In this document: one piece after another, positions 5,561 to 61,475 of the stretch
Layout of the letters: every line of letters begins with the position of its first letter
Position numbering within the stretch: position 1 is the first letter of the stretch
From: Halichondria panicea
Taxonomy: Eukaryota; Porifera; Demospongiae; Suberitida; Halichondriidae
Direction of reading: 5' to 3'
DNA length: 64,000 nt
Assembly: GCF_963675165.1 (NCBI RefSeq)
Contig: NC_087377.1
Coordinates: forward strand, 287,501 to 351,500
Notes under the pieces: generated by a model
The model's input: only the letters and a program-made list of their open reading frames with translations
Told to the model about the DNA's origin: nothing
Databases searched by the model: none
Translations under genes and position numbers: made by a program

Positions 5561-5717
5561 AAGAAACAGTGAGTACTGCCGCGTGCAGAGTGTGACTCTT
5601 TCCCTGACCAAACTTTGATCTCTCTTTCCCTGACCAAACTTTGATCTGAGCATATTTATGTGATAGGCCTTATCTAACGGTGCTTGGAATAGTTATTCGC
5701 TGTACTCCCCCCTAGTG

Positions 5718-11700: not shown

Positions 11701-14700
11701 GTTCCCTTGAGTGGGTTCAATTCACTAGCAATAGTTTTGCGTTCCCGTGAGTGGGTTCAATTCACTAGCAATAGTTTTGCGTTCCCGTGAGTGGGTTCAA
11801 TTCACTAGCAATAGTTTTACGTTCCCGTGAGTGGGTTCAATTCACTAGCAATAGTTTTAAGTTGCCGTGAGTGGGTTCAATTCCTAGCAATAGTTTTACG
11901 TTCCCATGAGTGGGTTCAATTCACTAGCAATAGTTTTGTGTTCCCGTGAGTGGGTTCAATTCACTAGCAATAGTTTTACTTTCCCTTGAGTGGGTTCAAT
12001 TCACTAGCAATAGTTTTACTTTCCCTTGAGTGGGTTCAATTCACTAGCAATAGTTTTACGTTGCCGTGAGTGCATGGGTTCACTTCACTAGCAATAGTTT
12101 TGCGTTCCCGTGAGTGGGTTCAATTCACTAGCAATAGTTTTGCGTTCCCGTGGGTGGGTTCAATTCACCAGCAATAGTTTTGCGTTCCCGTGGGTGGGTT
12201 CAATTCACCAGCAAAAGTTTTACGTTCCCGTGAGTGGGTTCAATTCACTAGCAATAGTTTTAAGTTCTCGTGATTGGTCACTAGCAATAGTTTTGCGTTC
12301 CCGTGGGTGGGTTCAATTCACTAGCAATAGTTTTGCGTTCCCGTGGGTGGGTTCAATTCACTAGCAATAGTTTTAAGTTGCCGTGAGTGGGTTCAATTCA
12401 CTAGCAATAGTTTTAAGTTGCCGTGAGTGGGTTCAATTCACTAGCAATAGTTTTAAGTTGCCGTGAGTGCATGGGTTCACTTCACTAGCAATAGTTTTAC
12501 GTTCCCGTGAGTGGGTTCAATTCACTAGCAATAGTTTTACGTTCCCTTGAGTGGGTTCAATTCACTAGCAATAGTTTTGCGTTCCCGTGAGTGGGTTCAA
12601 TTCACTAGCAATAGTTTTGCGTTCCCGTGAGTGGGTTCAATTCACTAGCAATAGTTTTACGTTCCCGTGAGTGGGTTCAATTCACTAGCAATAGTTTTAA
12701 GTTGCCGTGAGTGGGTTCAATTCCTAGCAATAGTTTTACGTTCCCATGAGTGGGTTCAATTCACTAGCAATAGTTTTGTGTTCCCGTGAGTGGGTTCAAT
12801 TCACTAGCAATAGTTTTACTTTCCCTTGAGTGGGTTCAATTCACTAGCAATAGTTTTACTTTCCCTTGAGTGGGTTCAATTCACTAGCAATAGTTTTAAG
12901 TTGCCGTGAGTGCATGGGTTCACTTCACTAGCAATAGTTTTACGTTCCCGTGAGTGGGTTCAATTCACTAGCAATAGTTTTACTTTCCCGTGAGTGGGTT
13001 CAATTCACTAGCAATAGTTTTAAGTTGCCGTGAGTGCATGGGTTTACTTCACTAGCAATAGTTTTACGTTCCCGTGAGTGGGTTCAATTCACTAGCAATA
13101 GTTTTACGTTCCCTTGAGTGGGTTCAATTCACTAGCAATAGTTTTACGTTCCCGTGAGTGGGTTCAATTCACTACCAATAGTTTCAAATTCCTGTGAGTG
13201 GGTTCAATTCACTAGCAATAGTTTTACGTTCCCGTGAGTGGGTTCAATTCACTAGCAATAGTTTTGCGTTCTTGTGAGTGGGTTCAATTCACTAGCAATA
13301 GTTTTGCGTTCCCGTGAGTGGGTTCAATTCACTAGCAATAGTTTTACGTTCCCGTGAGTGGGTTCAATTCACTAGCAATAGTTTTAAGTTGCCGTGAGTG
13401 GGTTCAATTCACTAGCAATAGTTTTACGTTCCCTTGAGTGGGTTCAATTCACTAGCAATAGTTTTGCGTTCCCTGAGTGGGTTCAATTCACTAGCAATAG
13501 TTTTGCGTTCCCGTGAGTGGGTTCAATTCACTAGCAATAGTTTTGCGTTCCCGTGAGTGGGTTCAATTCACTAGCAATAGTTTTACGTTCCCGTGAGTGG
13601 GTTCAATTCACTAGCAATAGTTTTACTTTCCCGTGAGTGGGTTCAATTCACTAGCAATAGTTTTACGTTCCCGTGAGTGGGTTCAATTAACTAGCAATAG
13701 TTTTACGTTCCCGTGAGTGGGTTCAATTCACTAGCAATAGTTTTACTTTCCTGTGAGTGGGTTCAATTCACTAGCAATAGTTTTACGTTCCCTTGAGTGG
13801 GTTCAATTCACTAGCAATAGTTTTGCGTTCCCTGAGTGGGTTCAATTCACTAGCAATAGTTTTGCGTTCCCGTGAGTGGGTTCAATTCACTAGCAATAGT
13901 TTTGCGTTCCCGTGAGTGGGTTCAATTCACTAGCAATAGTTTTACGTTCCCGTGAGTGGGTTCAATTCACTAGCAATAGTTTTACTTTCCCGTGAGTGGG
14001 TTCAATTCACTAGCAATAGTTTTACGTTCCCGTGAGTGGGTTCAATTAACTAGCAATAGTTTTACGTTCCCGTGAGTGGGTTCAATTCACTAGCAATAGT
14101 TTTACTTTCCTGTGAGTGGGTTCAATTCACTAGCAATAGTTTTACGTTCCGGTGAGTGGGTTCAATTCACTAGCAATAGTTTTGCGTTCCCGTGAGTGGG
14201 TTCAATTCACTAGCAATAGTTTTGCGTTCCCGTGAGTGGGTTCAATTCACTAGCAATAGTTTTACGTTCCCGTGAGTGGGTTCAATTCACTAGCAATAGT
14301 TTTAAGTTGCCGTGAGTGGGTTCAATTCACTAGCAATAGTTTTAAGTTGCCGTGAGTGCATGGGTTCACTTTACTAGCAATAGTTTTACGTTCCCGTGAG
14401 TGGGTTCAATTCACTAGCAATAGTTTTACGTTCCCTTGAGTGGGTTCAATTCACTAGCAATAGTTTTGCGTTCCCGTGAGTGGGTTCAATTCACTAGCAA
14501 TAGTTTTGCGTTCCCGTGAGTGGGTTCAATTCACTAGCAATAGTTTTACGTTCCCGTGACTGGGTTCAATTCACTAGCAATAATTTTACGTTCCCGTGAG
14601 TGCATGGGTTCAATTCACTAGCAATAGTTTTACGTACCCGTGAGTGGGTTCAATTCACTAGCAATAGTTTTACTTTCCCGTGGGTGGGTTCAATTCACTA

Positions 14701-16490
14701 GCAATAGTTTTAAGTTGCCGTGAGTGCATGGGTTCACTTCACTAGCAATAGTTTTACGTTCCCGTGAGTGGGTTCAATTCACTAGCAATAGTTTTACGTT
14801 CCCTTGAGTGGGTTCAATTCACTAGCAATAGTTTTGCGTTCCCTGAGTGGGTTCAATTCACTAGCAATAGTTTTGCGTTCCCGTGAGTGGGTTCAACTCA
14901 CTAGCAATAGTTTTGCGTTCCCGTGAGTGGGTTCAATTCACTAGCAATAGTTTTACGTTCCCGTGAGTGGGTTCAATTCACTAGCAATAGTTTTACTTTC
15001 CCGTGAGTGGGTTCAATTCACTAGCAATAGTTTTACGTTCCCGTGAGTGGGTTCAATTAACTAGCAATAGTTTTACGTTCCCGTGAGTGGGTTCAATTCA
15101 CTAGCAATAGTTTTACTTTCCCGTGAGTGGGTTCAATTCACTAGCAATAGTTTTACTTTCCTGTGAGTGGGTTCAATTCACTAGCAATAGTTTTACGTTC
15201 CCGTGAGTGGGTTCAATTCACTAGCAATAGTTTTGCGTTCTTGTGAGTGGGTTCAATTCACTAGCAATAGTTTTGCGTTCCCGTGAGTGGGTTCAATTCA
15301 CTAGCAATAGTTTTACGTTCCCGTGAGTGGGTTCAATTCACTAGCAATAGTTTTAAGTTGCCGTGAGTGGGTTCAATTCACTAGCAATAGTTTTAAGTTG
15401 CCGTGAGTGCATGGGTTCACTTCACTAGCAATAGTTTTACGTTCCCGTGAGTGGGTTCAATTCACTAGCAATAGTTTTACTTTCCCGTGAGTGGGTTCAA
15501 TTCACTAGCAATAGTTTTACGTTCCCGTGAGTGGGTTCAATTAACTAGCAATAGTTTTACTTTCCTGTGAGTGGGTTCAATTCACTAGCAATAGTTTTAC
15601 GTTCCCGTGAGTGGGTTCAATTCACTAGCAATAGTTTTACTTTCCTGTGAGTGGGTTCAATTCACTAGCAATAGTTTTACGTTCCCGTGAGTGGGTTCAA
15701 TTCACTAGCAATAGTTTTGCGTTCCCGTGAGTGGGTTCAATTCACTAGCAATAGTTTTGCGTTCCCGTGAGTGGGTTCAATTCACTAGCAATAGTTTTAC
15801 GTTCCCGTGAGTGGGTTCAATTCACTAGCAATAGTTTTAAGTTGCCGTGAGTGGGTTCAATTCACTAGCAATAGTTTTAAGTTGCCGTGAGTGCATGGGT
15901 TCACTTTACTAGCAATAGTTTTACGTTCCCGTGAGTGGGTTCAATTCACTAGCAATAGTTTTACGTTCCCTTGAGTGGGTTCAATTCACTAGCAATAGTT
16001 TTGCGTTCCCGTGAGTGGGTTCAATTCACTAGCAATAGTTTTGCGTTCCCGTGAGTGGGTTCAATTCACTAGCAATAGTTTTACGTTCCCGTGACTGGGT
16101 TCAATTCACTAGCAATAATTTTACGTTCCCGTGAGTGCATGGGTTCAATTCACTAGCAATAGTTTTACGTACCCGTGAGTGGGTTCAATTCACTAGCAAT
16201 AGTTTTACGTTCCCGTGGGTGGGTTCAATTCACTAGCAATAGTTTTAAGTTGCCGTGAGTGCATGGGTTCACTTCACTAGCAATAGTTTTACGTTCCCGT
16301 GAGTGGGTTCAATTCACTAGCAATAGTTTTGCGTTCCCTTGAGTGGGTTCAATTCACTAGCAATAGTTTTGCGTTCCCGTGAGTGGGTTCAATTCACTAG
16401 CAATAGTTTTGCGTTCCCGTGAGTGGGTTCAATTCACTAACAATAGTTTTGCGTTCCCGTGAGTGGGTTCAATTCACTGACAATAGTTTT
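5718..16490. repeat. 10.8-kb satellite array of a 40-bp unit (array 1)
   Basis: About 270 head-to-tail copies of a 40-bp monomer. Its core parts are GCGTTCCCGTGAGTGGG, TTCAATTCACTAGC and AATAGTTTT. Three length classes are mixed. The standard unit is 40 bp. A 33-bp unit lacks most of GTTCAATT (GAGTGGTCACTAGC). A 44-bp unit carries an extra CATG (GAGTGCATGGGTTC). Point variants such as GCG/ACG/AAG/ACT after TTTT are shared by distant monomers, so the array has grown by block duplication. The monomer has a small dyad (AGTG...CACT). Because 40 is not a multiple of 3, occasional 84-codon open frames are by-products. Confidence 0.97.
8433..12949. repeat. Nested higher-order repeats inside array 1 (840-bp and about 2,837-bp periods)
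   Basis: An 840-bp block (21 x 40 bp) starts at 8,433 and is repeated almost unchanged at 9,273. The pair recurs 2,837 bp downstream at 11,270 and 12,110. Rare marker variants confirm the 2,837-bp shift. GCGTACCCG occurs at 8,105 and 10,942, and CACTACCAATAGTTTC near 8,250 and 11,087. The copy at 11,270 has one change in the marker TGATTGGTC, which becomes TGATTAGTC. Confidence 0.9.
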
Positions 16491-16491
16491 G

Positions 16492-16612
16492 GTTTTTGCG
16501 CTGTACTCCTCCCTTGCATGTGTGACTGTTGTTTGTAGTTTGTGCTTTTTGCGCTGTGCTCCTCCCTTGCATGTGTGACTGTGTTTTGTAGTTTGTGCTT
16601 TTTGCGCTGTAC
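16492..16612. repeat. 53-bp minisatellite at the right edge of array 1
   Basis: Two to three copies of a unit containing TTTTGTAGTTTGTGC, TTTTTGCGCTGTACTCC and TTGCATGTGTGACTG. The same unit borders the other 40-bp arrays at 41,233, 57,445 and 61,356. A fragment (GCTGTACTCCCCCCTAG) also begins arrays 1 and 2. A short CA tract follows at 16,616-16,640. Confidence 0.9.
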
Positions 16613-16649
16613 TCCCCACACTCACACACACACACACACAGTGAAGGAG

Positions 16650-18036: not shown

Positions 18037-19496
18037 CCAAGGAACAAGTACAGCAGCCATTCAGTGTTAGGTATAGTGCCAGACCATCAAACTATCATCA
18101 ATATATACACAACCATCAACCTACACAGAGAGCATGAGAGACTTGCCACACAACATAGCTAGCTACTCATCTGTGTGTATGATGTTACAGTGGCTCCTCC
18201 ACACACACAATCAACCTACACAGAGAGCATGAGAGACACTGTACACAATGGAACTACTTATCTTTTGCTGTGAAGAGACATCGACCTACACACCATAGAA
18301 GCCAGCCATACTTATCTTTGATGTCTCCATAGCTGCACACAAAACAATCAAGAGACACTATAAATGATAGTAGTGGGCGTTGAGATCTGAGCCTCTCCCC
18401 CACATCTCCAGTCAAGCCCCGCCCCCTTCAGTACCTGCAATACATTATACAGTGATGAGGTTAGTAATCCTCCCTGGGTCCCAGAGCAGCATGGCTTGTC
18501 TGTACCTGGGGGAGAGAGGAGACAAAAGCAGTGAGAGAATGGAACACTAGTACAGTAGCTAGTAGGAGGAGCTGTGTGTGTGTGCATTGTGGCTGCAAGA
18601 GAACAAGCAAATGCATGGTTACATTGAGAGCAGCAGTTCAAACAAAACCATCCACTCCACACAATACAATACCAGCCAATCACCACCACAGCTGACAACC
18701 ATCGGCCTAGTATTATCAATACACACACAATACATAATTATAACACCAGACAACAAAATTACACCCATAGCTGTTTGTGCTGTGCAGAGAAGAGATGAGA
18801 AATTCCCACAACAACAAATCAATTCAACAGCGAAGACCACCAATTAATTCAGATTATTATTATCATCATAATACCAGACCAGGAGTGAATGCACTCCTGA
18901 CCAGACAAATCATTATAATCAAATCACACATCATCACCAAACCAGACTGTGCAACAAAATTTCCCACCCCACAACAACCAATCAAATCAACCACAGGAGG
19001 ACCACCACCAGTAGTCCAGTAGTTTCCTTGCCCAAGGGACTAATACAATAAGGGCATAATAAACTAAAGGGACCCTGTGACTGTGAGTACCATTAACTGA
19101 GCACAGAGGTAATCAACCAGAATGTGTGGGATGGTTCAACAACAGTAGACTCACAGAGACAACACCTCCTTGCTCTTGAAGCCCTTCTCGACTCCAGTTG
19201 CAACAAGCCTGGCACACCTAGGGTTTAGTTAAAGCCTGAACTTACCAATTCCATGTGCAGTAGGCACAGAGTTAAGATCCTAAAAAAGCCGTCATAACAG
19301 ATTAGTATAAGCCAAGAAGCAGCAGTTGTCTAACTATAATTATTATAGCTATCTATTCTAATGATCCTATATAGCTAACTAACTATTGGAACTGATAACG
19401 AGATCTTAACACTCCCAATTATGGCAGGATCCTGTGCTGCTTTCCTTTAGGCAGGTACTAACAGCAGAGTGCTCCCTCAATAGACTGGAACGCCAC

Positions 19497-38325: not shown

Positions 38326-38447
38326 AGTGAGTACTGCCGCGTGCAGAGTGTGACTCTTTCCCTGACCAAACTTTGATCTGAGCATATTCATGTGATAGGC
38401 CTTATCTAACAGTGCTTGGAATAGTTATTCGCTGTACTCCCCCCTAG

Positions 38448-41232
38448 TGTTTACATTCCCGTGGGTGGGTTCAATTCACTAGCAATAGTTTTGCGTTCCC
38501 GTGAGTGGGTTCAATTCACTAGCAATAGTTTTGCGTTCCCGTGAGTGGTCACTAGCAATAGTTTTGCGTTCCCGTGAGTGGGTTCAATTCACTAGCAATA
38601 GTTTTAAGTTCCCGTGAGTGGTCACTAGCAATAGTTTTGCGTTCCCATGAGTGGGTTCAATTCACTAGCAATAGTTTTGAGTTCCCGTGGGTGGGTTCAA
38701 TCACTAGCAATAGTTTTAAGTTCTCGTGAGTGGTCACTAGCAATAGTTTTGCGTTCCCATGAGTGGGTTCAATTCACTAGCAATAGTTTTAAGTTCCCTT
38801 GAGTGGTCACTAGCAATAGTTTTGCGTTCCCGTGGGTGGGTTCAATTCACTAGCAATAGTTTTGCATTCCCTTGGGTGGGTTCAATTCACTAGCAATAGT
38901 TTTACGTTCCCGTGAGTGGGTTCAATTCACTAGCAATAGTTTTACGTTCCCGTGAGTGGGTTCAATTCACTAGCAATAGTTTTAAGTTCCCGTGAGTGGG
39001 TTCAATTCACTAGCAATAGTTTTACGTTCCCGTGAGTGGGTTCAATTCACTAGCAATAGTTTTGCGTTCCCGTGAGTGGGTTCAATTCACTAGGTGAGTG
39101 GGTTCAATTCACTAGCAATAGTTTTGCATTCCCTTGGGTGGGTTCAATTCACTAGCAATAGTTTTACGTTCCCGTGAGTGGGTTCAATTCACTAGCAATA
39201 GTTTTAAGTTCCCGTGAGTGGGTTCAATTCACTAGCAATAGTTTTACGTTCCCGTGAGTGGGTTCAATTCACTAGCAATAGTTTTGCGTTCCCGTGAGTG
39301 GGTTCAATTCACTAGCAATAGTTTTGCGTTCCCGTGGGTGGGTTCAATTCACTAGCAATAGTTTTGCATTCCCTTGGGTGGGTTCAATTCACTAGCAATA
39401 GTTTTGCGTTCCCGTGAGTGGGTTCAATTCACTAGCAATAGTTTTAAGTTCCCGTGAGTGGGTTCAATTCACTAGCAATAGTTTTACGTTCCCGTGAGTG
39501 GGTTCAATTCACTAGCAATAGTTTTGCGTTCCCGTGAGTGGGTTCAATTCACTAGGTGAGTGGGTTCAATTCACTAGCAATAGTTTTGCATTCCCTTGGG
39601 TGGGTTCAATTCACTAGCAATAGTTTTACGTTCCCGTGAGTGGGTTCAATTCACTAGCAATAGTTTTAAGTTCCCGTGAGTGGGTTCAATTCACTAGCAA
39701 TAGTTTTACGTTCCCGTGAGTGGGTTCAATTCACTAGCAATAGTTTTGCGTTCCCGTGAGTGGGTTCAATTCACTAGCAATAGTTTTGCATTCCCTTGAG
39801 TGGGTTCAATTCACTAGCAATAGTTTTACTTTCCCGTGAGTGGGTTCAATTCACTAGCAATAGTTTTAAGTTCCCGTGAGTGGGTTCAATTCACTAGCAA
39901 TAGTTTTGCGTTCCCGTGAGTGGGTTCAATTCACTAGCAATAGTTTTGCGTTCCCGTGAGTGGGTTCAATTCACTAGCAATAGTTTTGCGTTCCCGTGGG
40001 TGGGTTCAATTCACTAGCAATAGTTTTGCGTTCCCGTGGGTGGGTTCAATTCGCTAGCAATAGTTTTGCGTTCTCGTGAGTGGGTTCAATTCACTAGCAA
40101 TAGTTTTAAGTTCTCGTGAGTGGTCACTAGCAATAGTTTTGCGTTCCCGTGGGTGGGTTCAATTCACTAGCAATAGTTTTGTGTTCCCGTGGGTGGGTTC
40201 AATTCACTAGCAATAGTTTTAAGTTCCCGTGAGTGGTCACTAGCAATAGTTTTGCGTTACCGTGGATGGGTTCAATTCACTAGCAATAGTTTTGCGTTCT
40301 CGTGAGTGGGTTCAATTCACTAGCAATAGTTTTGCATTCCTTTGAGTGGGTTCAATTCACTAGCAATAGTTTTACGTTCCCGTGAGTGGGTTCAATTCAC
40401 TAGCAATAGTTTTAAGTTCCCGTGAGTGGGTTCAATTCACTAGCAATAGTTTTGCGTTCCCATGGGTGGGTTCAATTCACCAACAATAGTTTTACGTTCC
40501 CGTGAGTGGGTTCAATTCACTAGCAATAGTTTTAAGTTCTCGTGAGTGGTCACTAGCAATAGTTTTGCGTTCCTGTGGGTGGGTTCAATTCACTACCAAT
40601 AGTTTTTCGTTCCCGTGAGTGGGTTCAATTCACTAGCAATATTTTTAAGTTCCCGTGAGTGGTCACTAGCAATAGTTTTGCGTTCCCGTGGGTGGGTTCA
40701 ATTCACTAATAATAGTTTTGCTTTCTCGTGAGTGGGTTCAATTCACTAGCAATAGTTTTGCAATCCCTTGAGTGGGTTCAATTCACTAGCAATAGTTTAC
40801 GTTCCCGTGAGTGGGTTCAATTCACTAGCAATAGTTTTAAGTTCCCGTGAGTGGGTTCAATTCGCTAGCAATAGTTTTGCATTCCCTTGAGTGGGTTCAA
40901 TTCACTAGCAATAGTTTTACGTTCCCGTGGGTGGATTCAATTCACTAGCAATAGTTTCAAGTTTCCGTGAGTGGGTTAAATTCACTAGCAATAGTTTTAC
41001 GTTCCCGTTAGTGGGTTCAATTCACTAGCAATAATTTTGCGTTCCCGTCAGTGGGTTCAATTCACTAGCAATAGTTTTGCGTTCCCGTGAGTGGGTTCAA
41101 TTCACTATAGCAATAGTTTTAAGTTCCCGTGAGTGGTCACTAGCAATAGTTTTGCGTTCCCATGAGTGGGTTCAATTCACTAGCAATAGTTTTACGTTCC
41201 CGTGAGTGGGTTCAATTCACTAGCAATAGTTT
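38448..41232. repeat. 2.8-kb array of the 40-bp satellite (array 2)
   Basis: About 70 monomers, mostly 40 bp, with some 33-bp units. A truncated-monomer marker (CACTAGGTGAGTGGG) at 39,091 and 39,553 shows a 462-bp block duplication. Near the right end the monomers are more degenerate (CTATAGCAATAG, CAATCCCTTG), as expected at an old array edge. A lone monomer lies at about 41,457-41,495. Confidence 0.97.
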
Positions 41233-41457
41233 TACGTGTTTTGTAGTTTGTGCTTTTTGCGCTGTACTCTCCCCTTGCATGTGTGACTGTGTTTTGTAGT
41301 TTGTGCTTTTTGCGCTGTACTCCTCCCTTGCATGTGTTACTGTGTTTTGTAGTTTGTGCTTTTTGCGCTGTACTCCCCCCCTTGCATGTGTGACTGTGTT
41401 TTGTAGTTTGTGTGCTTTTTGCGCTGTACTCCCCCCTTGCATGTGTGACTGTGTTTA
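41233..41457. repeat. 53-bp minisatellite at the right edge of array 2
   Basis: Four copies of the TTTTGTAGTTTGTGC / TGCGCTGTACTCCCC / TTGCATGTGTGACTG unit. One has a GTGTGC expansion. Confidence 0.95.
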
Positions 41458-44814: not shown

Positions 44815-45915
44815 CCAAGGAACAAGTACAGCAGTCATTCAGTGTTAGGTAGTGCCAGACCATCAAACCATCGCCTTGTCCATCCATATATACACAACCA
44901 TTAACCTACGTAGGGAGATAAAAGACTTTCTACACAACATAGCTATAGCTACTCATCTGTAAATTGCAGCCATTCAGTGTTAGGTAGTGCCAGACCATCA
45001 CCCTACGTAGGGAGATAAAAGACTTGCTACTCATCTGTATGTATGCTGTTACAGTGGCTCTTCCACAACCATCAACCTACACAGAGAGCATGAGAGACTT
45101 GTCACACAACATAGCTAGCTACTCATCTGTGTGTATGCTGTTACAGTGGCTTCTCCACACACAAATCAACCTACACAGAGAGCATGAGAGACACTGTACA
45201 CAATGGAGCTACTTATCTTTTGCTGTGAAGAGACATCCACCTACACACCATAGAAGCCAGCCGTTGATGTCTCCATAGCACACAAAACAATCGAGAGACA
45301 CTATAAATGATAGTAGTGGGCGGTGAGATCTGAGCCCTTCCCCCACATCTCCAGTCAAGCCCCGCCCCCTTCAGTACCTGCAATACATTATACAGTGATG
45401 AGGTTAGTAATCCTCCCTGGGTCCCAGAGCAGCATGGCTTGTCTGTACCTGGGGGAGAGAGGAGACAAAAGCAGTGAGAGAATGGAACACTAGTACAGTA
45501 GCTAGTAGGAGGAGCTGTGTGTGTGTGCATTGTGGCTGCAAGAGATGCATGGTTACATTGAGAGCAGCAGTTCAAACAAAACCATCCACTCCACACAATA
45601 CAATACCAGCCAATCACCACCACAGCTGACAACCATCATCCTAGTATTATCAATACACACACAATACATAATTATAACACCAGACAACAAAATTACACCC
45701 ATAGCTGTTTGTGCTGTGCAGAGAAGAGATGAGAAATTCCCACAACAACAAATCAATTCAACAGCGAAGACCACCAATTAATTCAGATCATTATTATCAT
45801 CTTAATACCAGACCTTGAATGAATGCACTCCTGACCAGACAAATCATTATAATCAAATCACACATCATCACCAAACCAGACTGTGCAACAAAATTTCCCA
45901 ACCCCACAACAACCA
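44815..45915. repeat. Duplicated unit, copy 3, left part
   Basis: It aligns with 18,037-18,980 up to CCCCACAACAACCA and is then interrupted by the 6-kb insertion. The unit resumes at 51,890 with CAATCAAATCAACCACAG. Confidence 0.9.
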
Positions 45916-46655
45916 CACACATAAATGAAAGGTGTCAATTTGGCATGCAAACGCGTGTCAAACTGCTTTCCCAAAAATTAACACACTAACACGGGTGTCA
46001 AATTAATATATGTCATTTTTACTGTGTCAAAACTGAAACATGCTGTAACTTTTGGTGTGTCGAACAGAGGTATGTCATTTTAAAACGTCACGGTTACAAG
46101 AATATGACCATATAAATAAAAATACACAAAAGGAACGCCGGAATTATACATAAATATCAAGTAAAACTGAATATAACATAATCATAATTGATACAGTCGG
46201 TAACTAACTCGGTAATAACTTGGTAACAGTAAATGTACAGTTGGGGTAACTAATGTTGTTTAGCGAGTTTATGAATGATGAGTACCTCACTGTTTTTTTT
46301 ACAGATGTCTTTTTCACACCCATCAACACTTCCTGTATGAAGAGAAGGAGACCAGAGGCAGGTGATGGCTTGGGGTAACTGACGTAGAAGGCGTAGTATG
46401 TTGCAAACAAGCTGATAACCGAGTCAATGACACTGTCGCCCAATACTTCAAAGAGAACCTTTCCTTCACCAAGGATGAACGCTTGCATGCCATTCATGCT
46501 CTTGTCAGCAAAAATTGCAAGCCTTGGCTCTGGAAAGGTCTTTTCAGCTGTCACTTCCTCAATATCAGTCCCGACCTGCAACAAATAAGAGTTAAATTTG
46601 AGGTGCATGCTTCCACAATAATGACGCATGAAAGGAATTACAGTGTTACTGCCTC

Positions 46656-46722
46656 CGTATAATTATATAGCCGGTAATTTTCGGGAGACAAAATATTTGA
46701 TTACCGGCTATAATTATGCGTA
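46656..46722. repeat. Inverted repeat in the intron before the last SAM-gene exon
   Basis: ATAATTATATAGCCGGTAAT faces ATTACCGGCTATAATTAT across a loop of about 25 bases. Confidence 0.6.
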
Positions 46723-48716
46723 TATATACGTTGTTGTTTTTACTTACTTGATACAAAGTAAAAGCAGCTGCAGCTTTAGAGGCTACTCCTGCGGGCCTGA
46801 GTTGTGTGTCAATGAACAGAAGTCCCTTGTATAGCTCCGAGTTTCTTCAGAGTCAGTGGGCACTTCACCATCCATCTGCAGCAGAGTTGGAACAATCTTA
46901 GTCCAAGAATCTCTGATTCGAGAGATGGATTCCTCCCCACACATTAGCGTGAACTCCAACAGCACCTATAACATTTCAAGACTCAATAAATAACCAAGAA
47001 AACATTAGGTGTATAATTATGGTTAAATAAACAATTTAAAGAGCTAACGCACTTACCCATTGATTTCTTGTGAAGAAAGGATTATGTCAAAAGAAGAATT
47101 GACATCTTGTCACCTGAATCTCCAATTCTCTTCCTTCTTTGTTGGTGCGTCTCCCTTATTAACTGTGTAATTGCTGCGTTGTTAGGCGCTTTCTTGGTGA
47201 ATTGGTCGCACAACCGACCGTGGTTTCGATCGTATGCACATTCGTCCACACTGATAACGGAGTCTTGGCCAGGAGCGGCTTCAGCTGGCTTTGCTGCAAT
47301 TATTTGCACTAAGTGCGCCTTTTCTGTCTTGAGAGGTTTGATTGCTGACGGTACTGACCTCCTTCTCCGATTTCAGAAGAACATAGTAACCTGTTGCTTC
47401 ACTGTATGCTGCATGCATGTTGTATGATTAATTATAGCTATAAAAATTTGCAATTATGTATAATTATAATACATGCATGCATTGTTATTATTGTATAATG
47501 CTCACCCAATAGCATCCGTCAATTACAATCTTGTTTCGTAGCTGCTCAAAGCTATTACACAAAACCTTAGCCATTTCGTCGTACTGATTTCCTTTCGGAT
47601 TCGGGCAAAGACCATAATAGAAGAGGGAAGCTTCTCGTATTAATGCTAGTTTGTCTTTTCCGTAAATTTGTTTCGCTATTATTGCTCTGTTTACTCTCTC
47701 ACTGAATACTGGTGGAAGTGGGCACGGAGTTGGTAGGGTCTTCGTAGGTGCTGCCAGCACCAGTGGGCAAGGAGTTGGTAGGGTCTTCGTAGGTGCTGCC
47801 AGCACTTCGTACTCTTCTGTCCATGGCTTTTTAGCAGGTGGTTCAGCTGCTTCATCACTTCTTGCAGGCAGCATTGCTAGAGGATAGTTGGCCACAGCTT
47901 CGTCCTCAAAATCCCCCATGTTGTAATCCTCTATCAGATTATAGCTGGCACTCATTTGACGTATCGTACCACTCATGGAGCAATTTTCCTGTAGTTATAA
48001 AAGAACGTATATATTATGTCTCAAACTTAACACCACAGAATAAGGGTATTTCGTGGCCAAAAAATTGCCGCTTTGTTAAAGAATTGCACACTTGTGCAAT
48101 GTATGAAATAGAAGCCCCTGTAGTGTGCTATGGTGGTTAGCAACAATTGTAGTTGAACGCCCACATTTACCACAATGCTCAGCTCAGTAGAATGGGGTAG
48201 AATGAGAATTGCAGTTGAATACAGTACAATGGGTACAATAGAGCACGGTATAGAATGGGTAGCATATTCTAGAATTGCAGTACAATGGGTTAACTCTTTT
48301 AAGCACTCAACAATTAAAATTACCTGCTATAATTATGGTACTAAAGTAAAATGTGTAAATGATTCTAACCTTTTCAAGAAGAGATTTGAGTGCCATCCTC
48401 AATCCACTCTGCGGCAACATATGCTTAAATTCCTCAAAGTCATTGGGTAGTTAAAGCAGTGCAATGCCATCAATTAGGTTTTCTGTAAGTGCAAACAGAT
48501 AATAATGTACTATAAAAGCTAAGAATATACCTAAGAAGACACTATAATAATTATTAGTCTACGAGTTGTACCTTTGAATGCAGAAACTACTGTTTCAGGA
48601 AAGCAGTTTTCCCTCAAGAGTCTCCCCACATCAGTTACAGACAACTTTTCCATCTCTTTCAAGGTTCTTTCAAGGTTTCTAAGTAACAAGTCTAGAGAAT
48701 ATTGCTCTAGGCTATA

Positions 48717-48742
48717 TCTAGTGCGCATGCGCTCTAGATAAA
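48717..48742. promoter_or_regulatory. NRF1-type palindrome between two divergent genes
   Basis: TGCGCATGCGC sits in a near-palindrome (TATCTAGTGCGCATGCGCTC). It matches the NRF1 consensus. It lies just inside the SAM gene's first codons and about 115 bp upstream of the transposase ATG at 48,849. NRF1 motifs are common in TATA-less bidirectional promoters. Use by both genes is an inference. Confidence 0.45.
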
Positions 48743-48848
48743 ACTGCATAAAATATCGAAATTGGTAACTATTATATTACTGATAAATACAAGCGTGCAA
48801 AGCAGTTAGCTCATCAGGTCTCTATAGATATATCTTTCCGTATTAATT

Positions 48849-51829
48849 ATGGCTGACAACTGTGTAGTGACCTGTTGCATGTGTCTTTTTCAGTGCTATT
48901 CCCACAAGTCTCTGCTAAAGCACACTCTTGCTGTTCATCAAAATGATCCAAGATTTATGGTCAATTGTAGTGTATGTGGCAAGTCAGCAACAAAATGGGA
49001 GACTTTGAGGAAGCATTTACGAAAGCATGGTAAGTCAGCTAATGAGATCATACATAATAATAGATCTAGCATTAAAACTACTACTATTTAATACATCTAT
49101 AGTTTTGAATATTACATCTATAGTTTTGAAGTACTTCAACCATTTTTTATAATTATATACAGATGTTCAGATCGACGCAAGTGATCCAATTACAAGTGAC
49201 CCAGAATCTTGTACAACCACAAATGATGACGTTGACGACGATTCACTACCATCGGTTACATCGGCTCATCCCAAGTTTGACCGGGCCATGTTTCTTCTTC
49301 GCAGCACTAGCAGTTTAGCACTTAATTATTCAAGCATCGAACATCTATGCGAATCAACACAGACACTAATGGAGCAAACTGCAGGACAAATGCAGCAGAA
49401 AATGTTGTGTTGTCTTCAAGAAAAAGGCATCACTGTGGATGAGGTCGTGAAGAAGATTGTCACAGAATGTTGCAATGTTGATGAAATGTTTAGCGGTTTG
49501 TCTTCACGAGCGTTAAGAGAGAAATACTACAAACAGCATCTCAATTATGTGGTAATTAACGTATTATTTTGTTATCAGTACAATGTAGCATGAAGGTACA
49601 TGCATTGTTTTATCATCTCATCATGTTAAATTACTGTATATGCATGCAATTACAAAATGTATGTTACTAGGAACCATCACCATCACTTCTCAACAAGAAC
49701 TTGGACTGGGTGAATGACCACGGCAAGATGCATCTGAAGGAGGTTGAGGCTAAGGGGTACTACATTGATCTCTGGGAGAGCTTGAGGTTTGTGCTATTTA
49801 CCAACTCAATCACTGGTTTTATTTTTATAACTTAATTGTCAGAGTTTGCTATCAAATCCAAATCCTGCTGTTAGAGAAGAGATCATTGGAAAAAGTCATG
49901 TCAGTACAGATGGTAGCATGCGCGATATCTGTGATGGGGACTTTGTTAAGAAACATCCAGTCTTTCGAGCACATCCAGATGGTTTACAGTTTTTACTGTA
50001 TCATGATGACATTGAAGTTTGTAATCCTCTCGGAACCAGTGCTGGAGTTCACAAGTTTGGTGAGAATTGCATTACATGTTGGTTTATACCTTTTTATAAT
50101 GACATGTAGGTGTGTTTTACTATATATATACATTGGGAAACATAAGACCAGTGTTTCGATCATCGCTCCAAGCTATTCAACTACTTGGAGTGGCTAAGTC
50201 ATCGGACATGAATCAGAGTGCACGTGATATCCTCCTCAGAAACTTTGTTCAATGCATGAAATTGCTTTCAACAGTAAGTGTTGCTGGTAGTTTTCTTTTT
50301 TTTAACATTACCGTGACGTACCTATGATAATGGATATCTCGTGTGTATACATTTCAAATATGCTATTGCAGGATGAAGGATACAGGTTAGAGCTAGACTC
50401 AGGTGTGGTAGTACTTCATGGAGCTGTCGTCTGTCTCTGTGGTGACATACCTGCTAGTAATTTTCTTGGAGGTTTTAAAAAAGGTGTTGGGTTTGCGCTA
50501 CGGAAATGCAGGCAGTGTCTTTGTTCGAAAGAAGATTTAAAACATAATGTGAGTTAAAAAACCACTGGTGCTAATTGTATTAATTTTTAACTACTTATAG
50601 TTTCATGTTGGTGCGTATACCCTGAGAGACTCTCATAGTCACAACCATTACTGTCAGCTAGTGGAAAGTGATGTGAATGGATGTTTGGGGTACTCAACTA
50701 CGTATGGAGTGAATAATGCGAGCATTCTTCTGGACATTCCATTCTTTGATGTCACCAAATGTCTTCCGTACGACATAATGCACACAATATTTGAAGGTAA
50801 AAATTCATTCAATAGCACACAAATATAAATTATTGCTTCTGTTCATTAGGTGTTGCTCCACGTCTCCTCAAAGAGCTTCTTGTTACTTTTATCAATATCA
50901 AGAAGTACTTCACCTTGTCAGAGCTCAACCAATCTCTTGCATCCCACCATTACGGATATTCAGAGCTTGACACCAAACCAAACACAATTACTGGGTCGAC
51001 GATGGAGTATCATATCAAACAGAAAGGTGAATGTTCATATCATTTTCCCCACTTTTGTACAATGCTTACTTTCATAATTAAAAAGCACATAAATCATCAT
51101 TACACGCAGCTTCTCAGATGAAAGCACTGATCCGATTATTCCCGTTTATCATGGGGGGCTTTGTTCCAGAGGGCGATGAACACTGGGGTCTTCTCCTAAC
51201 TCTGTGGGATATCTGCACAATGGTGACCGCATTTGTGGTTACAGAGGCAGATGCTTCTGATCTGGCATGGAAAGTAGAGTTGTTGCTAGAAACATATGTG
51301 CAACTCTATCCAAACTCGCCCTATGTTCCAAAGATGCATTATCTTCTGCATCTACCTGACGAACTATTAAGGTATTCTAAAATGTCTAAATTAATGCATA
51401 AAGTATATACTTTATTTCATTAGATTTGGTCAACCACGAAACACATGGTGTATGCGGTTTGAATCCAAGAATAAGGAGTTAAAAGGTTTCACCTCAAACT
51501 GCTTTAAGAATGTCCCATACAGTGTGAGTGTCCGACACCAGCAGAGGTATTGTCACCTTCTAGCAGTGCGTCCTGGACAAGAGATGTCAAATTTCTTGTA
51601 CAAAGGAGATGAAGTATCCTCAGGTAAATTTCTATTGCTGTTTGTAAATACAGAATAATTATTACTTTGGAGCTAACTTTTCCTAGGAAAATCTGTCATT
51701 TTGGACAATGATCTGGTAGCACCGGTTACACAACTGTGTGGATTGGACCACCCTCAGCTGCCACTTGTTGCTTATCGGTTAGTTTCGTTACCTTTCACAA
51801 CAAGCTTGTACCAGTGTATACATTTTTAA
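48849..51829 (+). CDS. EnSpm/CACTA-like DDE transposase with N-terminal C2H2 fingers
   Basis: Eleven exons: 48,849-49,029; 49,163-49,551; 49,671-49,786; 49,845-50,059; 50,110-50,273; 50,372-50,548; 50,601-50,796; 50,850-51,026; 51,110-51,371; 51,424-51,623; 51,687 on. All phases agree and no internal stop is seen. Exon 1 encodes two C2H2 fingers (CCMC...HTLAVH and CSVC...HLRKH). The core has STDGSM, YHDDIEVCNPLG, YTLGNIRPVFRSSLQ, YDIMHTIFEG and NTWCMRFESKNKEL. These are hallmarks of the animal EnSpm-type family (compare the D-MH-E motif of CACTA TNP2). The enzyme would cut and paste the element. Read-through of the last exon stops at about 51,829, only 60 bp before host sequence, so the C-terminus is probably truncated. 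A TATATA expansion adds residues in YYIYTLGN. Confidence 0.75.
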
Positions 51830-52466
51830 TTGTTACGATGTCAGCAAACAAACCCACAGCATTATGTTTAAAACAACAGTAACTACATGCAATCAAATCA
51901 ACCACAGAAGGACCACCACCAGTAGTCCAGTAGTTTCCTTGCCCAAGGGACTAATACAATAAGGGCATAATAAACTAAAGGGACCCTGTGACTGTGAGTA
52001 CCATTAACTAATCTAGCACAGAAGTAATTAACCAGAATGTGTGGGATGGTTCAACAACAGTAGACTCACAGAGACAACACCTCCTTGCTCTTGAAGACCT
52101 CGTCGACTCCAGTTGCAACAAGCCTGGCACGCAAGGCTTGCACAAGTGCTCAAGACTACTCTTCACTAATCCAGTCAAAAGCTACAGTTCCCTTGGCACA
52201 CCTATAGTTTAGTTAAAGCCTGAACTTACCAATTCCATGTGCAGTAGGCACAGAGTTAAGATCCTAAAAAAGCTGTCATAACAGATTAGCATAAGCAGCA
52301 GTTGTCTAACTATATTATAGCTAGCTATTCTAATGATCCTAGCTATTAAACTAACTTATAGTCTATTGGAACTGATAACGAGATCCCAATTATGGCAGGA
52401 TCCTGTGCTGCTTTCCCTTTAGGCAGTTACTAACGGCAGAGTGCTCCCTCAATAGACTGGAGTGCC

Positions 52467-57822: not shown

Positions 57823-57832
57823 AGTCACTAGC

Positions 57833-60800
57833 AATAGTTTTACGTTCCCGTGAGTGGGTTCAATTCACTAGCAATAGTTTTGCGTTCCCGTGAGTGGGTT
57901 CAATTCACTAGCAATAGTTTTGCGTTCCCGTGAGTGGGTTCAATTCACTAGCAATAGTTTTGCCGTGAGTGCATGGGTTCAATTCACTAGCAATAGTTTT
58001 ACTTTCCCGTGAGTGGGTTCAATTCACTAGCAATAGTTTTACGTTCCCGTGAGTGGGTTCAATTCACTAGCAATAGTTTTACTTTCCTGTGAGTGGGTTC
58101 AATTCACTAGCAATAGTTTTACGTTCCCGTGAGTGGGTTCAATTCACTAGCAATAGTTTTGCGTTCTTGTGAGTGGGTTCAATTCACTAGCAATAGTTTT
58201 GCGTTTTCGTGGGTGGGTTCAATTCACTAGCAATAGTTTTACGTTCCCGTGAGTGGGTTCAATTGACTAGCAATAGTTTTGCGTTCCCGTGAGTGGGTTC
58301 AATTCACTAGCAATAGTTTTGCGTTCCCGTGGGTGGGTTCAATTCACTAGCAATAGTTTTACGTTCCCGTGAGTGGGTTCAATTCACTAGCAATTGTTTT
58401 ACGTTCCCGTGAGTGGGTTCAATTCACTAGCAATAGTTTTAAGTTCCCGTGAGTGGTCACTAGCAATAGTTTTGCGTTCCCGTGGGTGGGTTCAATTCAC
58501 TAGCAATAGTTTTAAGTTCTTGTGAGTGGTCATTAGCAATAGTTTTGCGTTCCCGTGAGTGGGTTCAATTCACTAGCAATAGTTTTGCGTTCCCGTGGGT
58601 GGGTTCAATTCACTAGCAATAGTTTTGCGTTCTCGTGAGTGGGTTCAATTCACTAGCAATAGTTTTGCATTCCCTTGAGTGGGTTTAATTCACTAGCAAT
58701 AGTTTTACGTTCCCGTGAGTGGGTTCAATTCACTAGCAATAGTTTTAAGTTCCCGTGAGTGGGTTCAATTCACTAGCAATAGTTTTGCGTTCCCGTGGGT
58801 GGGTTCAATTCACTAGCAATAGTTTTTCGTTCCCGTGAGTGGGTTCAATTCACTAGCAATAGTTTTGCGTTCCCGTGGGTGGGTTCAATTCACTAGCAAT
58901 AGTTTTGTGTTCCCGTGGGTGGGTTCAATTCACCAGCAATAGTTTTACGTTCCCGTGAGTGGGTTCAATTCACTAGCAATAGTTTTAAGTTCTCGTGAGT
59001 GGTCACTAGCAACAGTTTTGCGTTCCCGTGGGTGGGTTCAATTCACTAGCAATAGTTTTGCGTTCCCGTGGGTGGGTTCAATTCACTAGCAATAGTTTTG
59101 CGTTTCCGTGGGTGGGTTCAATTCACTAGCAATAGTTTTAAGTTCCCGTGAGTGGTCACTAGCAATAGTTTTGCGTTCCCGTGGATGGGTTCAATTCACT
59201 AGCAATAGTTTTGCGTTCTTGTGAGTGGGTTCAATTCACTAGCAATAGTTTTGGTTCAATTCACTAGCAATAGTTTTACGTTCCCGTGAGTGGGTTCAAT
59301 TCACTAGCAATAGTTTTGCGTTCCCGTGGGTGGGTTCAATTCACTAGCAATAGTTTTGCGTTCCCGTGGGTGGGTTCAATTCACTAGCAATAGTTTTACG
59401 TTCCCGTGAGTGGGTTCAATTCACTAGCAATAGTTTTAAGTTCCCGTGAGTGGTCACTAGCAATAGTTTTGCGTTCCCATGAGTGGGTTCAATTCACTAG
59501 CAATAGTTTTGCGTTCCCGTGGGTGGGTTCAATTCACTAGCAATAGTTTTAAGTTCTTGTGAGTGGTCATTAGCAATAGTTTTGCGTTCCCATGAGTGGG
59601 TTCAATTCACTAGCAATAGTTTTGCATTCCCGTGGGTGGGTTCAATTCACTAGCAATAGTTTTAAGTTCTCGTGAGTGGTCACTAGCAATAGTTTTGCGT
59701 TCCCGTGGGTGGGTTCAATTCACTAGCAATAGTTTTGCGTTCCCGTGGGTGGGTTCAATTCACTAGCAATAGTTTTGCGTTCCCGTGAGTGGGTTCAATT
59801 CACTAGCAATAGTTTTGCGTTCCCGTGGGTGAGTTCAATTCACTAGCAATAGTTTTACGTTCCCGTGAGTGGGTTCAATTCACTAGCAATAGTTTTGCGT
59901 TCTTGTGAGTGGGTTCAATTCACTAGCAATAGTTTTGCGTTCCCGTGAGTGGGTTCAATTCACTAGCAATAGTTTTACGTTCCCGTGAGTAGGTTCAATT
60001 CACTAGCAATAGTTTTAAGTTGCCGTGAGTGGGTTCAATTCACTAGCAATAGTTTTAAGTTGCCGTGAGTGCATGGGTTCACTTCACTAGCAATAGTTTT
60101 ACGTTCCCGTGAGTGGGTTCAATTCACTAGCAATAGTTTTACGTTCCCTATGAGTGGGTTCAATTCACTAGCAATAGTTTTGCGTTCCCGTGAGTGGGTT
60201 CAATTCACTAGCAATAGTTTTGGTTCAATTCACTAGCAATAGTTTTACGTTCCCGTGAGTGGGTTCAATTCACTAGCAATAGTTTTGCGTTCCCGTGGGT
60301 GGGTTCAATTCACTAGCAATAGTTTTGCGTTCCCGTGGGTGGGTTCAATTCACTAGCAATAGTTTTACGTTCCCGTGAGTGGGTTCAATTCACTAGCAAT
60401 AGTTTTACGTTCCCGTGAGTGGGTTCAATTCACTAGCAATAGTTTTAAGTTCCCGTGAGTGGTCACTAGCAATAGTTTTGCGTTCCCATGAGTGGGTTCA
60501 ATTCACTAGCAATAGTTTTGCGTTCCCGTGGGTGGGTTCAATTCACTAGCAATAGTTTTAAGTTCTTGTGAGTGGTCATTAGCAATAGTTTTGCGTTCCC
60601 ATGAGTGGGTTCAATTCACTAGCAATAGTTTTGCATTCCCGTGGGTGGGTTCAATTCACTAGCAATAGTTTTAAGTTCTCGTGAGTGGTCACTAGCAATA
60701 GTTTTGCGTTCCCGTGGGTGGGTTCAATTCACTAGCAATAGTTTTGCGTTCCCGTGGGTGGGTTCAATTCACTAGCAATAGTTTTGCGTTCCCGTGAGTG

Positions 60801-61352
60801 GGTTCAATTCACTAGCAATAGTTTTGCGTTCCCGTGGGTGAGTTCAATTCACTAGCAATAGTTTTACGTTCCCGTGAGTGGGTTCAATTCACTAGCAATA
60901 GTTTTGCGTTCTTGTGAGTGGGTTCAATTCACTAGCAATAGTTTTGCGTACCCGTGAGTGGGTTCAATTCACTAGCAATAGTTTTACGTTCCCGTGAGTG
61001 GGTTCAATTCACTAGCAATAGTTTTAAGTTGCCGTGAGTGGGTTCAATTCACTAGCAATAGTTTTAAGTTGCCGTGAGTGCATGGGTTCACTTCACTAGC
61101 AATAGTTTTACGTTCCCGTGAGTGGGTTCAATTCACTAGCAATAGTTTTACGTTCCCTTGAGTGGGTTCAATTCACTAGCAATAGTTTTGCGTTCCCGTG
61201 AGTGGGTTCAATTCACTAGCAATAGTTTTGCGTTCCCGTGAGTGGGTTCAATTCACTAGCAATAATTTTACGTTCCCGTGAGTGCATGGGTTCAATTCAC
61301 TAGCAATAGTTTTACGTTCCCGTGAGTGGGTTCAATTCACTGACAATAGTTT
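57833..61352. repeat. 3.5-kb array of the 40-bp satellite (array 3)
   Basis: About 88 monomers of the 33-, 40- and 44-bp classes. A deletion marker (TTTTGGTTCAATTC) at about 59,252 and 60,221 reveals a block duplication of about 970 bp. The right end (CACTGACAATAGTTTTGG) is identical to that of array 1. Confidence 0.97.
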
Positions 61353-61355
61353 TGG

Positions 61356-61475
61356 TTTTTGCGCTGTACTCCTCCCTTGCATGTGTGACTGTTTTTTGTA
61401 GTTTGTGCTTTTTGCGCTGTGCTCCTCCCTTGCAGGTGTGACTGTGTTTTGTAGTTTGTGCTTTTTGCGCTGTAC
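61356..61475. repeat. 53-bp minisatellite at the right edge of array 3
   Basis: Two to three units as at 16,492-16,612, followed by the same short CA tract (61,483-61,502). Confidence 0.9.

What the first reader, a model, noticed from the sequence alone, without database searches (positions are those of the whole stretch)
45916..51889. Transposon with a SAM-domain gene head to head with its transposase, and a paralogous empty site
The duplicated unit at 18,037 is uninterrupted at AACAACC/AATCAAATC. The unit at 44,815 is split at that point by 5,974 bp holding exactly two divergent genes. The transposase has no internal stop and its exon phases agree, which argues for recent activity. A SAMD3-like protein as cargo beside an EnSpm-like transposase would explain why SAMD3-like genes are so numerous in some animal genomes. 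This is an inference, and the role of the SAM protein (targeting, partner of the transposase, or passenger) is open.
Basis: partly seen in the sequence, partly recalled or inferred. Interest (0 to 1): 0.8.

Follow-up and report, generated by a model that had tools for sequence, protein, structure and literature searches.

The report
Transposon carrying a SAMD3-like helper gene
A broken, duplicated copy of an animal jumping gene carries a second, SAMD3-like gene back to back with its transposase, and similar pairs of genes lie side by side in several other jumping-gene families of this genome, so the second gene looks more like a working partner than a stowaway.

Summary
The 5,974-bp insertion (45,916-51,889) is real. 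CA stands on both sides, and the paralogous unit at 18,037 is uninterrupted there. But this copy is damaged. Its transposase stops inside the last intron and lacks exon 12, so 51,889 is not a true terminus. Its SAM gene has two premature stops. The seven C1 copies are one insertion spread by segmental duplication, so 'recent activity' is not supported. A copy on C6, with other flanks, holds parts of both genes, divergently. The left end (CACACATAAATG...) lies outside the SAM gene. A ~1.5-kb non-autonomous family with CACA inverted repeats, 2-bp duplications and subterminal repeats shares it.

Outside the array, 7 of 18 loci with the SAM protein's middle domain lie within 6 kb of a related transposase (0.06 expected), in five families: four divergent, one tandem. 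The middle domain shows purifying selection between two families. Against: 11 of 18 loci are unpaired, and 25 of 32 transposase loci show no partner. The SAM and EnSpm labels rest on weak matches, the right terminus was not found, and other animals could not be searched. Most likely it is a TNPA-like accessory gene of a CMC/EnSpm-like element.

The parts
45914..45915 (.). CA, left copy of a likely 2-bp target-site duplication (second copy at 51890-51891; single CA in the empty site at 18970-18988)
   Evidence: a 2-bp match alone could be chance
45916..51889 (.). whole insertion, 5974 bp, truncated on the right
   Evidence: comparison with the empty unit; C6 homology runs to about 51885 and then continues into sequence the window lacks
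45916..46042 (+). left terminus, CACACATAAATGAAAGGTGTC..., shared at 95-96% with eight dispersed places of a non-autonomous family
45933..46078 (+). six same-orientation TGTCA[AT] subterminal repeats (all in the first 180 bp; at most 2 in any other 180-bp stretch sampled every 20 bp)
46204..46580 (-). SAM gene, C-terminal exon (exon 6 in my numbering), limits approximate
   Evidence: splice sites by eye
46780..46970 (-). SAM gene, probable exon 5, limits uncertain
   Evidence: reading of the sequence only
47082..47395 (-). SAM gene exon 4, basic motif NRRRR, premature stop in the window copy; limits approximate
47506..47988 (-). SAM gene exon 3, carrying the conserved middle domain
48370..48482 (-). 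SAM gene exon 2, second half of the SAM-like domain, premature stop in the window copy
48572..48653 (-). SAM gene exon 1, start codon and first half of the SAM-like domain
48654..48848 (.). 195-bp stretch between the two divergent start codons
48849..49029 (+). transposase exon 1, C2H2 zinc finger(s)
   Evidence: Pfam zf-C2H2 E 5.2e-5, 23.9 bits, just under the family cut-off of 25.2
49163..51777 (+). transposase exons 2-11, open in the window copy; exon 12 missing
51778..51889 (+). start of the last transposase intron, cut off at the insertion's right edge
   Evidence: comparison with the C6 copy
18970..18988 (.). paralogous empty site

Best explanation
The insertion is a 3'-truncated, inactivated copy of a two-gene cut-and-paste DNA transposon with CACTA/EnSpm-like (CMC-like) architecture. 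One gene is a multi-exon transposase with an N-terminal zinc finger. The divergent gene encodes an accessory protein made of a SAM-like domain, a conserved middle domain followed by a basic motif, and a C-terminal part. SHOWN: the left terminus lies outside both genes; copies with different flanks (window, C6) hold both genes or parts of them; related middle-domain genes sit beside related transposases in four more families of this genome; the middle domain is under purifying selection between the two families compared; the left end carries subterminal repeats. INFERRED: the accessory protein acts like plant TNPA. It would bind the subterminal repeats through its middle domain or basic motif, bring the ends together by self-association of its SAM-like domain, and assist or regulate the transposase, which cuts the ends and leaves 2-bp duplications. 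The window copy was truncated and then spread on C1 with its host unit by segmental duplication. I put about 0.75 on 'genuine element gene, not passenger' and about 0.4 on the specific TNPA-like role.
For: C6 copy with other flanks and parts of both genes. Left terminus outside the SAM gene, shared with a non-autonomous family that has TIRs and 2-bp duplications in 3 of 3 copies read to both ends. Linkage: 7 of 18 middle-domain loci outside the array lie within 6 kb of a transposase match, 0.06 expected under uniform placement; the C6 copy of the window family is one of the 7. Divergent at C6, C8, C20 and C3; tandem in three copies of one further family, 1,587-1,592 bp from the transposase match. 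Leave-one-out profile matches between middle domains: C7 1e-5, C8 8e-7, window 1.2e-3. Window versus C6:443 kb middle domain: pS 0.83, pN 0.30 over 47 codons. Subterminal repeats.
Against: 11 of 18 middle-domain loci have no transposase match within 6 kb. By subtraction, 25 of 32 transposase loci have no middle-domain match, among them all six copies of a 636-643-aa open transposase frame. The right terminus of the SAM/transposase element was not found. All copies examined are defective, and C6 lacks SAM exons 1-2 and the transposase N-terminus. Window versus C6 exon 3 shows 3 synonymous and 5 non-synonymous changes (dS 0.027, dN 0.014), too few to show selection. No Pfam SAM match. The window-type profile scores the C20 and C3 domains weakly (E 0.042 and 4.7); those two are tied in through the C7 query (7.8e-5 and 1.3e-4), and the C3 transposase match is weak (2e-4, with stops). 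Binding of the repeats and any effect on transposition are untested.
Confidence: 0.65

Rival explanations
1. The SAM-type gene is a captured host gene carried as passenger cargo.
For: Most transposase loci found show no such neighbour (25 of 32). A related open transposase frame of 636-643 aa, in six copies, has none detected. SAM, Ulp1 and PHD modules are also used by host proteins (recalled).
Against: Middle domains only 19-23% identical to the window's accompany different transposase families, in two gene orders, and the domain is under purifying selection between two families. A single capture does not predict this.
Confidence: 0.17
2. Middle-domain genes are host genes, or an unrelated repeat family, that lie near transposases by chance or by clustering of repeats.
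For: 11 of 18 loci are unpaired. Repeats cluster, so a uniform null is too lenient.
Against: Seven loci lie within 6 kb but only three in the 6-60 kb band (22.9, 26.3 and 52.5 kb), which is not what broad clustering gives. Orientation is head to head at four sites and spacing near constant at the three tandem sites. The C6 and window copies share the left terminus.
Confidence: 0.08
3. The two genes were brought together only in this locus and spread by segmental duplication; the insertion says nothing about transposition.
For: True of the C1 array: flanks are duplicated with the element.
Against: The C6 copy has other flanks on both sides. Other families repeat the pairing.
Confidence: 0.05
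4. The accessory gene is part of the element but acts in host interaction (targeting, chromatin, escape from silencing) and not on the element's ends.
For: Two related loci carry the middle domain near an Ulp1-type protease and a PHD finger, modules that suggest SUMO or chromatin contact (recalled). SAM domains often mediate protein-protein contact (recalled).
Against: No direct evidence either way. The basic motif after the middle domain and the subterminal repeats fit DNA binding better, but only by inference.
Confidence: 0.25

Closest known systems
Plant CACTA elements En/Spm, Tam1, Tgmt (CMC superfamily)
   Same: Two element-encoded functions (transposase plus a second protein), subterminal repeats near the ends, CAC-type terminus, short target-site duplication. 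In En/Spm, TNPA binds the subterminal repeats and both proteins are required (passages of PMC2613891).
   Different: There TNPA and TNPD come from one element's alternatively spliced transcripts; here there are two divergent genes. The second protein is a SAM-like/middle-domain protein. The left terminus reads CACA, not CACTA, and duplications are 2 bp, not 3 (3 bp for Tgmt).
Animal EnSpm/CMC elements (Repbase usage; recalled)
   Same: A transposase relative in this genome has a weak Transposase_21 (tnp2) match.
   Different: I recall no description of a SAMD3-like partner; Repbase was not checked.
SAMD3 / 'sterile alpha motif domain-containing protein 3-like' genes of fish and other animals (recalled; two such genes are named in tables of a carp-goldfish paper, passages of PMC6771007)
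   Same: SAM-like start, middle domain and C-terminal block as recalled from such proteins.
   Different: No sequence of these was available here, so homology was not computed.

Membership tests
CMC / EnSpm (CACTA) DNA transposons | DDE transposase of the tnp2/Transposase_21 kind | tested here: inconclusive
   No transposase-family Pfam match for the window exons tried (exons 1, 2, 4 and 9; exons 4-6 joined) or for exon 12 of the C6 copy; relative L045 gives Transposase_21 E 0.012, 15.3 bits against a cut-off of 28.6
CMC / EnSpm (CACTA) DNA transposons | Terminal inverted repeats beginning CAC(TA/TG) (recalled) | tested here: inconclusive
   Left end CACACATAAATG; imperfect CACA inverted repeats in the non-autonomous relatives; right end of the SAM/transposase element not found
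CMC / EnSpm (CACTA) DNA transposons | 2-4 bp target-site duplication (recalled range) | tested here: met
   TA, TA, TG in 3 of 3 non-autonomous copies read to both ends; CA at the window copy, although its right edge is a truncation
CMC / EnSpm (CACTA) DNA transposons | Subterminal repeats | tested here: met
   Six TGTCA[AT] in the first 180 bp of the window element, at most 2 in any other 180-bp stretch sampled; nine AGCACA in the last 250 bp of the C15 non-autonomous copy
CMC / EnSpm (CACTA) DNA transposons | Second protein needed for transposition | not testable with these tools
   Needs a transposition assay
SAMD3-like proteins | N-terminal SAM domain | tested here: inconclusive
   No Pfam match; of four PDB matches up to E 10, two are named SAM-domain proteins (8y77 E 0.78, 6luj/Atherin E 1.5), one, 2dkz E 0.46, I recall as a SAM domain, and one, 1jsm E 1.8, is unrelated
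SAMD3-like proteins | Sequence similarity to animal SAMD3 over middle and C-terminal parts | not testable with these tools
   No animal protein collection held; the resemblance is recalled

The most novel reading that the evidence does not exclude
A whole lineage of animal CMC/EnSpm-like transposons encodes a SAMD3-like partner protein as an essential second component, with the SAM module exchangeable for another (PB1-like) self-association module. The many 'SAMD3-like' genes annotated in animal genomes would then be transposon genes or relics of them, and SAMD3 itself possibly a domesticated one.
Probability: 0.35. Interest if true: 0.8.

Novelty: new variant of a known kind. Interest (0 to 1): 0.6.

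Why it matters
If true, it gives animal CACTA-like elements a second protein comparable to the one plant elements need. It would explain a group of annotated genes of unknown function as transposon machinery, and it makes a simple genome-wide test possible in any sponge, cnidarian or fish assembly. It also warns annotators that SAMD3-like and middle-domain gene models may be transposon genes.

Tried and rejected
Recent activity: rejected. Every copy examined is defective and the C1 copies are segmental duplicates. Right terminus: three guesses were dropped or left open. First, the window edge at 51,889 (C6 continues past it). Second, a TGTGTG end in C6 at L026:1176 (the C1:7.09 Mb match stops well before it). 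Third, the shared break after ...GATGGCACACTAC in C6 and C1:7.09 Mb (no duplication and no inverted repeat recognised by eye); this stays open. A reading in which the last window intron was coding was dropped once C6 showed exon 12. Viral contigs: 27 pattern matches for the transposase block, none confirmed. Literature: ten searches ran. None of the listed titles or abstract starts concerned a SAM-type transposon partner; one search listed 15 of 337 papers. Structure prediction of the middle domain never started.

Rows left out of the linkage count: all array places (C1 below 1.0 Mb and 13.33-13.35 Mb), and the five transposase rows with E above 0.01. Further hits of the same loci were merged or not re-entered. 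The C2:5.70 Mb middle-domain place (E 0.42) and other weak ones were kept and count as misses. All searches behind the count are six-frame, exon by exon and capped, so misses are not proof of absence.
Full report
Setting. The window is G000:C1:287,501-351,500 of a 131.5-Mb genome in 39 contigs.

The observation. The 5,974-bp insertion at 45,916-51,889 is real. The paralogous unit near 18,037 reads through without it. CA stands on both sides of the insertion and once in the empty site. In a capped search ten places on C1, the window's own among them, match across the empty junction: nine over query 1-441 and one over 1-415. The two genes are divergent, with 195 bp between the start codons.

A 401-base transposase query finds seven copies, all on C1, at 98-100% identity. 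Stretches around the six other than the window's were compared with the window. The right flank aligns in six of six, the left flank in five of six (for L008 in the neighbouring stretch L030, with several kilobases of other sequence between the two parts). In the sixth, at 13.34 Mb on the minus strand, homology ends at 46,178 inside the element. One insertion was therefore spread by segmental duplication. The copies are decayed. Window transposase exons 1-11 are open, but each of the six other C1 copies has a frameshift or stop in at least one of them. All seven share the same right edge, inside the last intron. In the window the SAM gene has a stop in exon 2 (also in L009, L010 and L011; not in L008, L012 or L013) and another in exon 4 (also in L009 and L010; not in L011, L012, L013, L030 or L026).

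A copy elsewhere. C6:389-395 kb holds a copy at about 94% nucleotide identity with different flanks on both sides. SAM gene and transposase are divergent there too. It lacks the stretch equivalent to 48,068-49,720 (SAM exons 1-2 and the transposase N-terminus) and has stops and small indels in several exons. It continues beyond the window's right edge to transposase exon 12 (107 codons with the stop). A further deletion derivative at C1:7.09 Mb has the left end, part of the SAM gene and transposase exon 12. So 51,889 is a truncation point.

Ends. The left terminus CACACATAAATGAAAGGTGTC... is shared by eight dispersed places over the first 127-130 bases at 95-96%, besides the fuller copies. One of the eight lies about 740 bp from the C6 copy. 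Three of the eight were read to both ends: 1,485-1,521 bp long, imperfect inverted repeats starting CACA, and 2-bp duplications TA, TA and TG. For two of the three an empty-site sequence occurs in the neighbouring sequence. In the C15 copy the last 250 bp carry nine AGCACA motifs. The left end of the window element carries six TGTCA[AT] motifs in one orientation in its first 180 bp; other 180-bp stretches, sampled every 20 bp, have at most two. The right terminus of the SAM/transposase element was not found; C6 and C1:7.09 Mb both break after ...GATGGCACACTAC without a recognisable duplication. The SAM gene nevertheless lies between the shared left terminus and the transposase.

Linkage test. 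I searched the genome with four versions of the SAM protein's middle domain and three transposase segments, then counted. The array was left out. There are 18 middle-domain loci and 32 transposase loci. Seven of 18 lie within 6 kb of a transposase match, against 0.06 expected under uniform placement (binomial 1e-13; 5 of 16 and 1e-9 if the three related tandem copies count once). The null ignores clustering, but only three further loci lie in the 6-60 kb band. C6 (the window family), C8, C20 and C3 are divergent pairs. C7:4.00 Mb, C7:6.20 Mb and C1:8.35 Mb belong to one family, with the accessory gene 1,587-1,592 bp downstream of the transposase match on the same strand. The C8 and C7 accessory exons were read: both show the middle domain followed by an exon with a basic motif; the C8 copy has a frameshift. 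The C7 gene starts with a different N-terminal block in place of the SAM-like domain; I take it for PB1-like from recall, and Pfam gives no match. Parts of the C20 and C3 exons were read and look alike by eye, but the window-type profile scores them weakly (E 0.042 and 4.7).

Against. Eleven of 18 middle-domain loci are unpaired, and by subtraction 25 of 32 transposase loci. Two unpaired loci (C6:443 kb, C9:4.09 Mb) carry the middle domain before an Ulp1-type protease and a PHD finger, with no match to window transposase exons at E 0.01 in their 9.9-kb stretches.

Homology and selection. Leave-one-out profiles find the omitted middle domains at E 1e-5 (C7), 8e-7 (C8) and 1.2e-3 (window) among all fetched frames. 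Between the window and C6:443 kb domains, 47 codons show pS 0.83 (saturated) and pN 0.30: purifying selection, not expected of idle cargo. Between the window and C6 element copies of exon 3 there are only 3 synonymous and 5 non-synonymous changes, which decides nothing.

Naming. The SAM-like domain has no Pfam match. Its four PDB matches up to E 10 are 2dkz (0.46; a SAM domain as I recall), two SAM-domain proteins (0.78 and 1.5) and an unrelated haemagglutinin (1.8). 'SAMD3-like' rests on recall. The transposase has a zinc-finger match just under the Pfam cut-off in exon 1. An open-frame relative has a sub-threshold Transposase_21 match. I therefore call the element CMC/EnSpm-like, not a proven member.

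Mechanism. In maize En/Spm, TNPA binds subterminal repeats and is required along with the transposase (passages of PMC2613891). The anatomy here is parallel: a second, conserved, element-encoded protein and subterminal repeats at the terminus. The best guess is that the middle domain and basic motif bind the repeats, and the SAM-like (or PB1-like) part self-associates to bring the ends together. Every step after 'element-encoded and conserved' is inference.

Novelty. The library searches (listings and abstract starts seen, 15 of 337 papers) listed no paper on a SAM-type transposon partner. Most subscription papers and Repbase are not covered.

The odds did not change.

Noticed in passing
C6:443,073-445,336 (L027:4073-6336) and C9:4,086,035-4,088,316 (L028): A 2.28-kb unit, 97.6% identical at two sites, with the SAM protein's middle domain followed by an Ulp1-type C48 protease and a PHD finger; no match to window transposase exons in either 9.9-kb stretch.
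   Followed up: partly
C1:2,194,999; C1:3,042,842; C5:2,585,748; C8:527,025; C11:2,502,671; C11:2,510,473 (L045-L050): Six similar copies of a related transposase as one open frame of 636-643 aa, with no accessory gene detected within 6 kb; possibly younger than the window family.
   Followed up: partly
C7:3,998,509-4,002,779 (L054, L077): A related transposase with a downstream same-strand gene: a PB1-like N-terminus (recalled, no Pfam match), a repeat-rich linker, the middle domain and a basic motif.
   Followed up: partly
window 5713-16615, 38445-41237, 57825-61357: Three long arrays of a roughly 40-bp tandem unit.
   Followed up: no
C1:71,359; 74,497; 77,635: The element's left end repeats at 3,138-bp spacing, a local tandem multiplication of flank plus element end.
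   Followed up: no
C12:1,638,050, C15:1,040,269 (-), C7:6,040,203 and five more places: A non-autonomous family of about 1.5 kb sharing the element's left 129 bp, with 64-bp internal tandem repeats in several copies, CACA inverted repeats and 2-bp duplications.
   Followed up: yes
C1:8,474,969 and C1:8,462,579-8,492,978: A 92% copy of the left end and, within some 30 kb, several fragments of the middle domain but no transposase match: perhaps a graveyard of this element type.
   Followed up: no
window 18,968 onward; C2:8.45 Mb, C5:6.86 Mb, C7:7.32 Mb, C10:78 kb, C16:5.78 Mb: The right flank of the insertion site belongs to a repeat also found on five other contigs.
   Followed up: no
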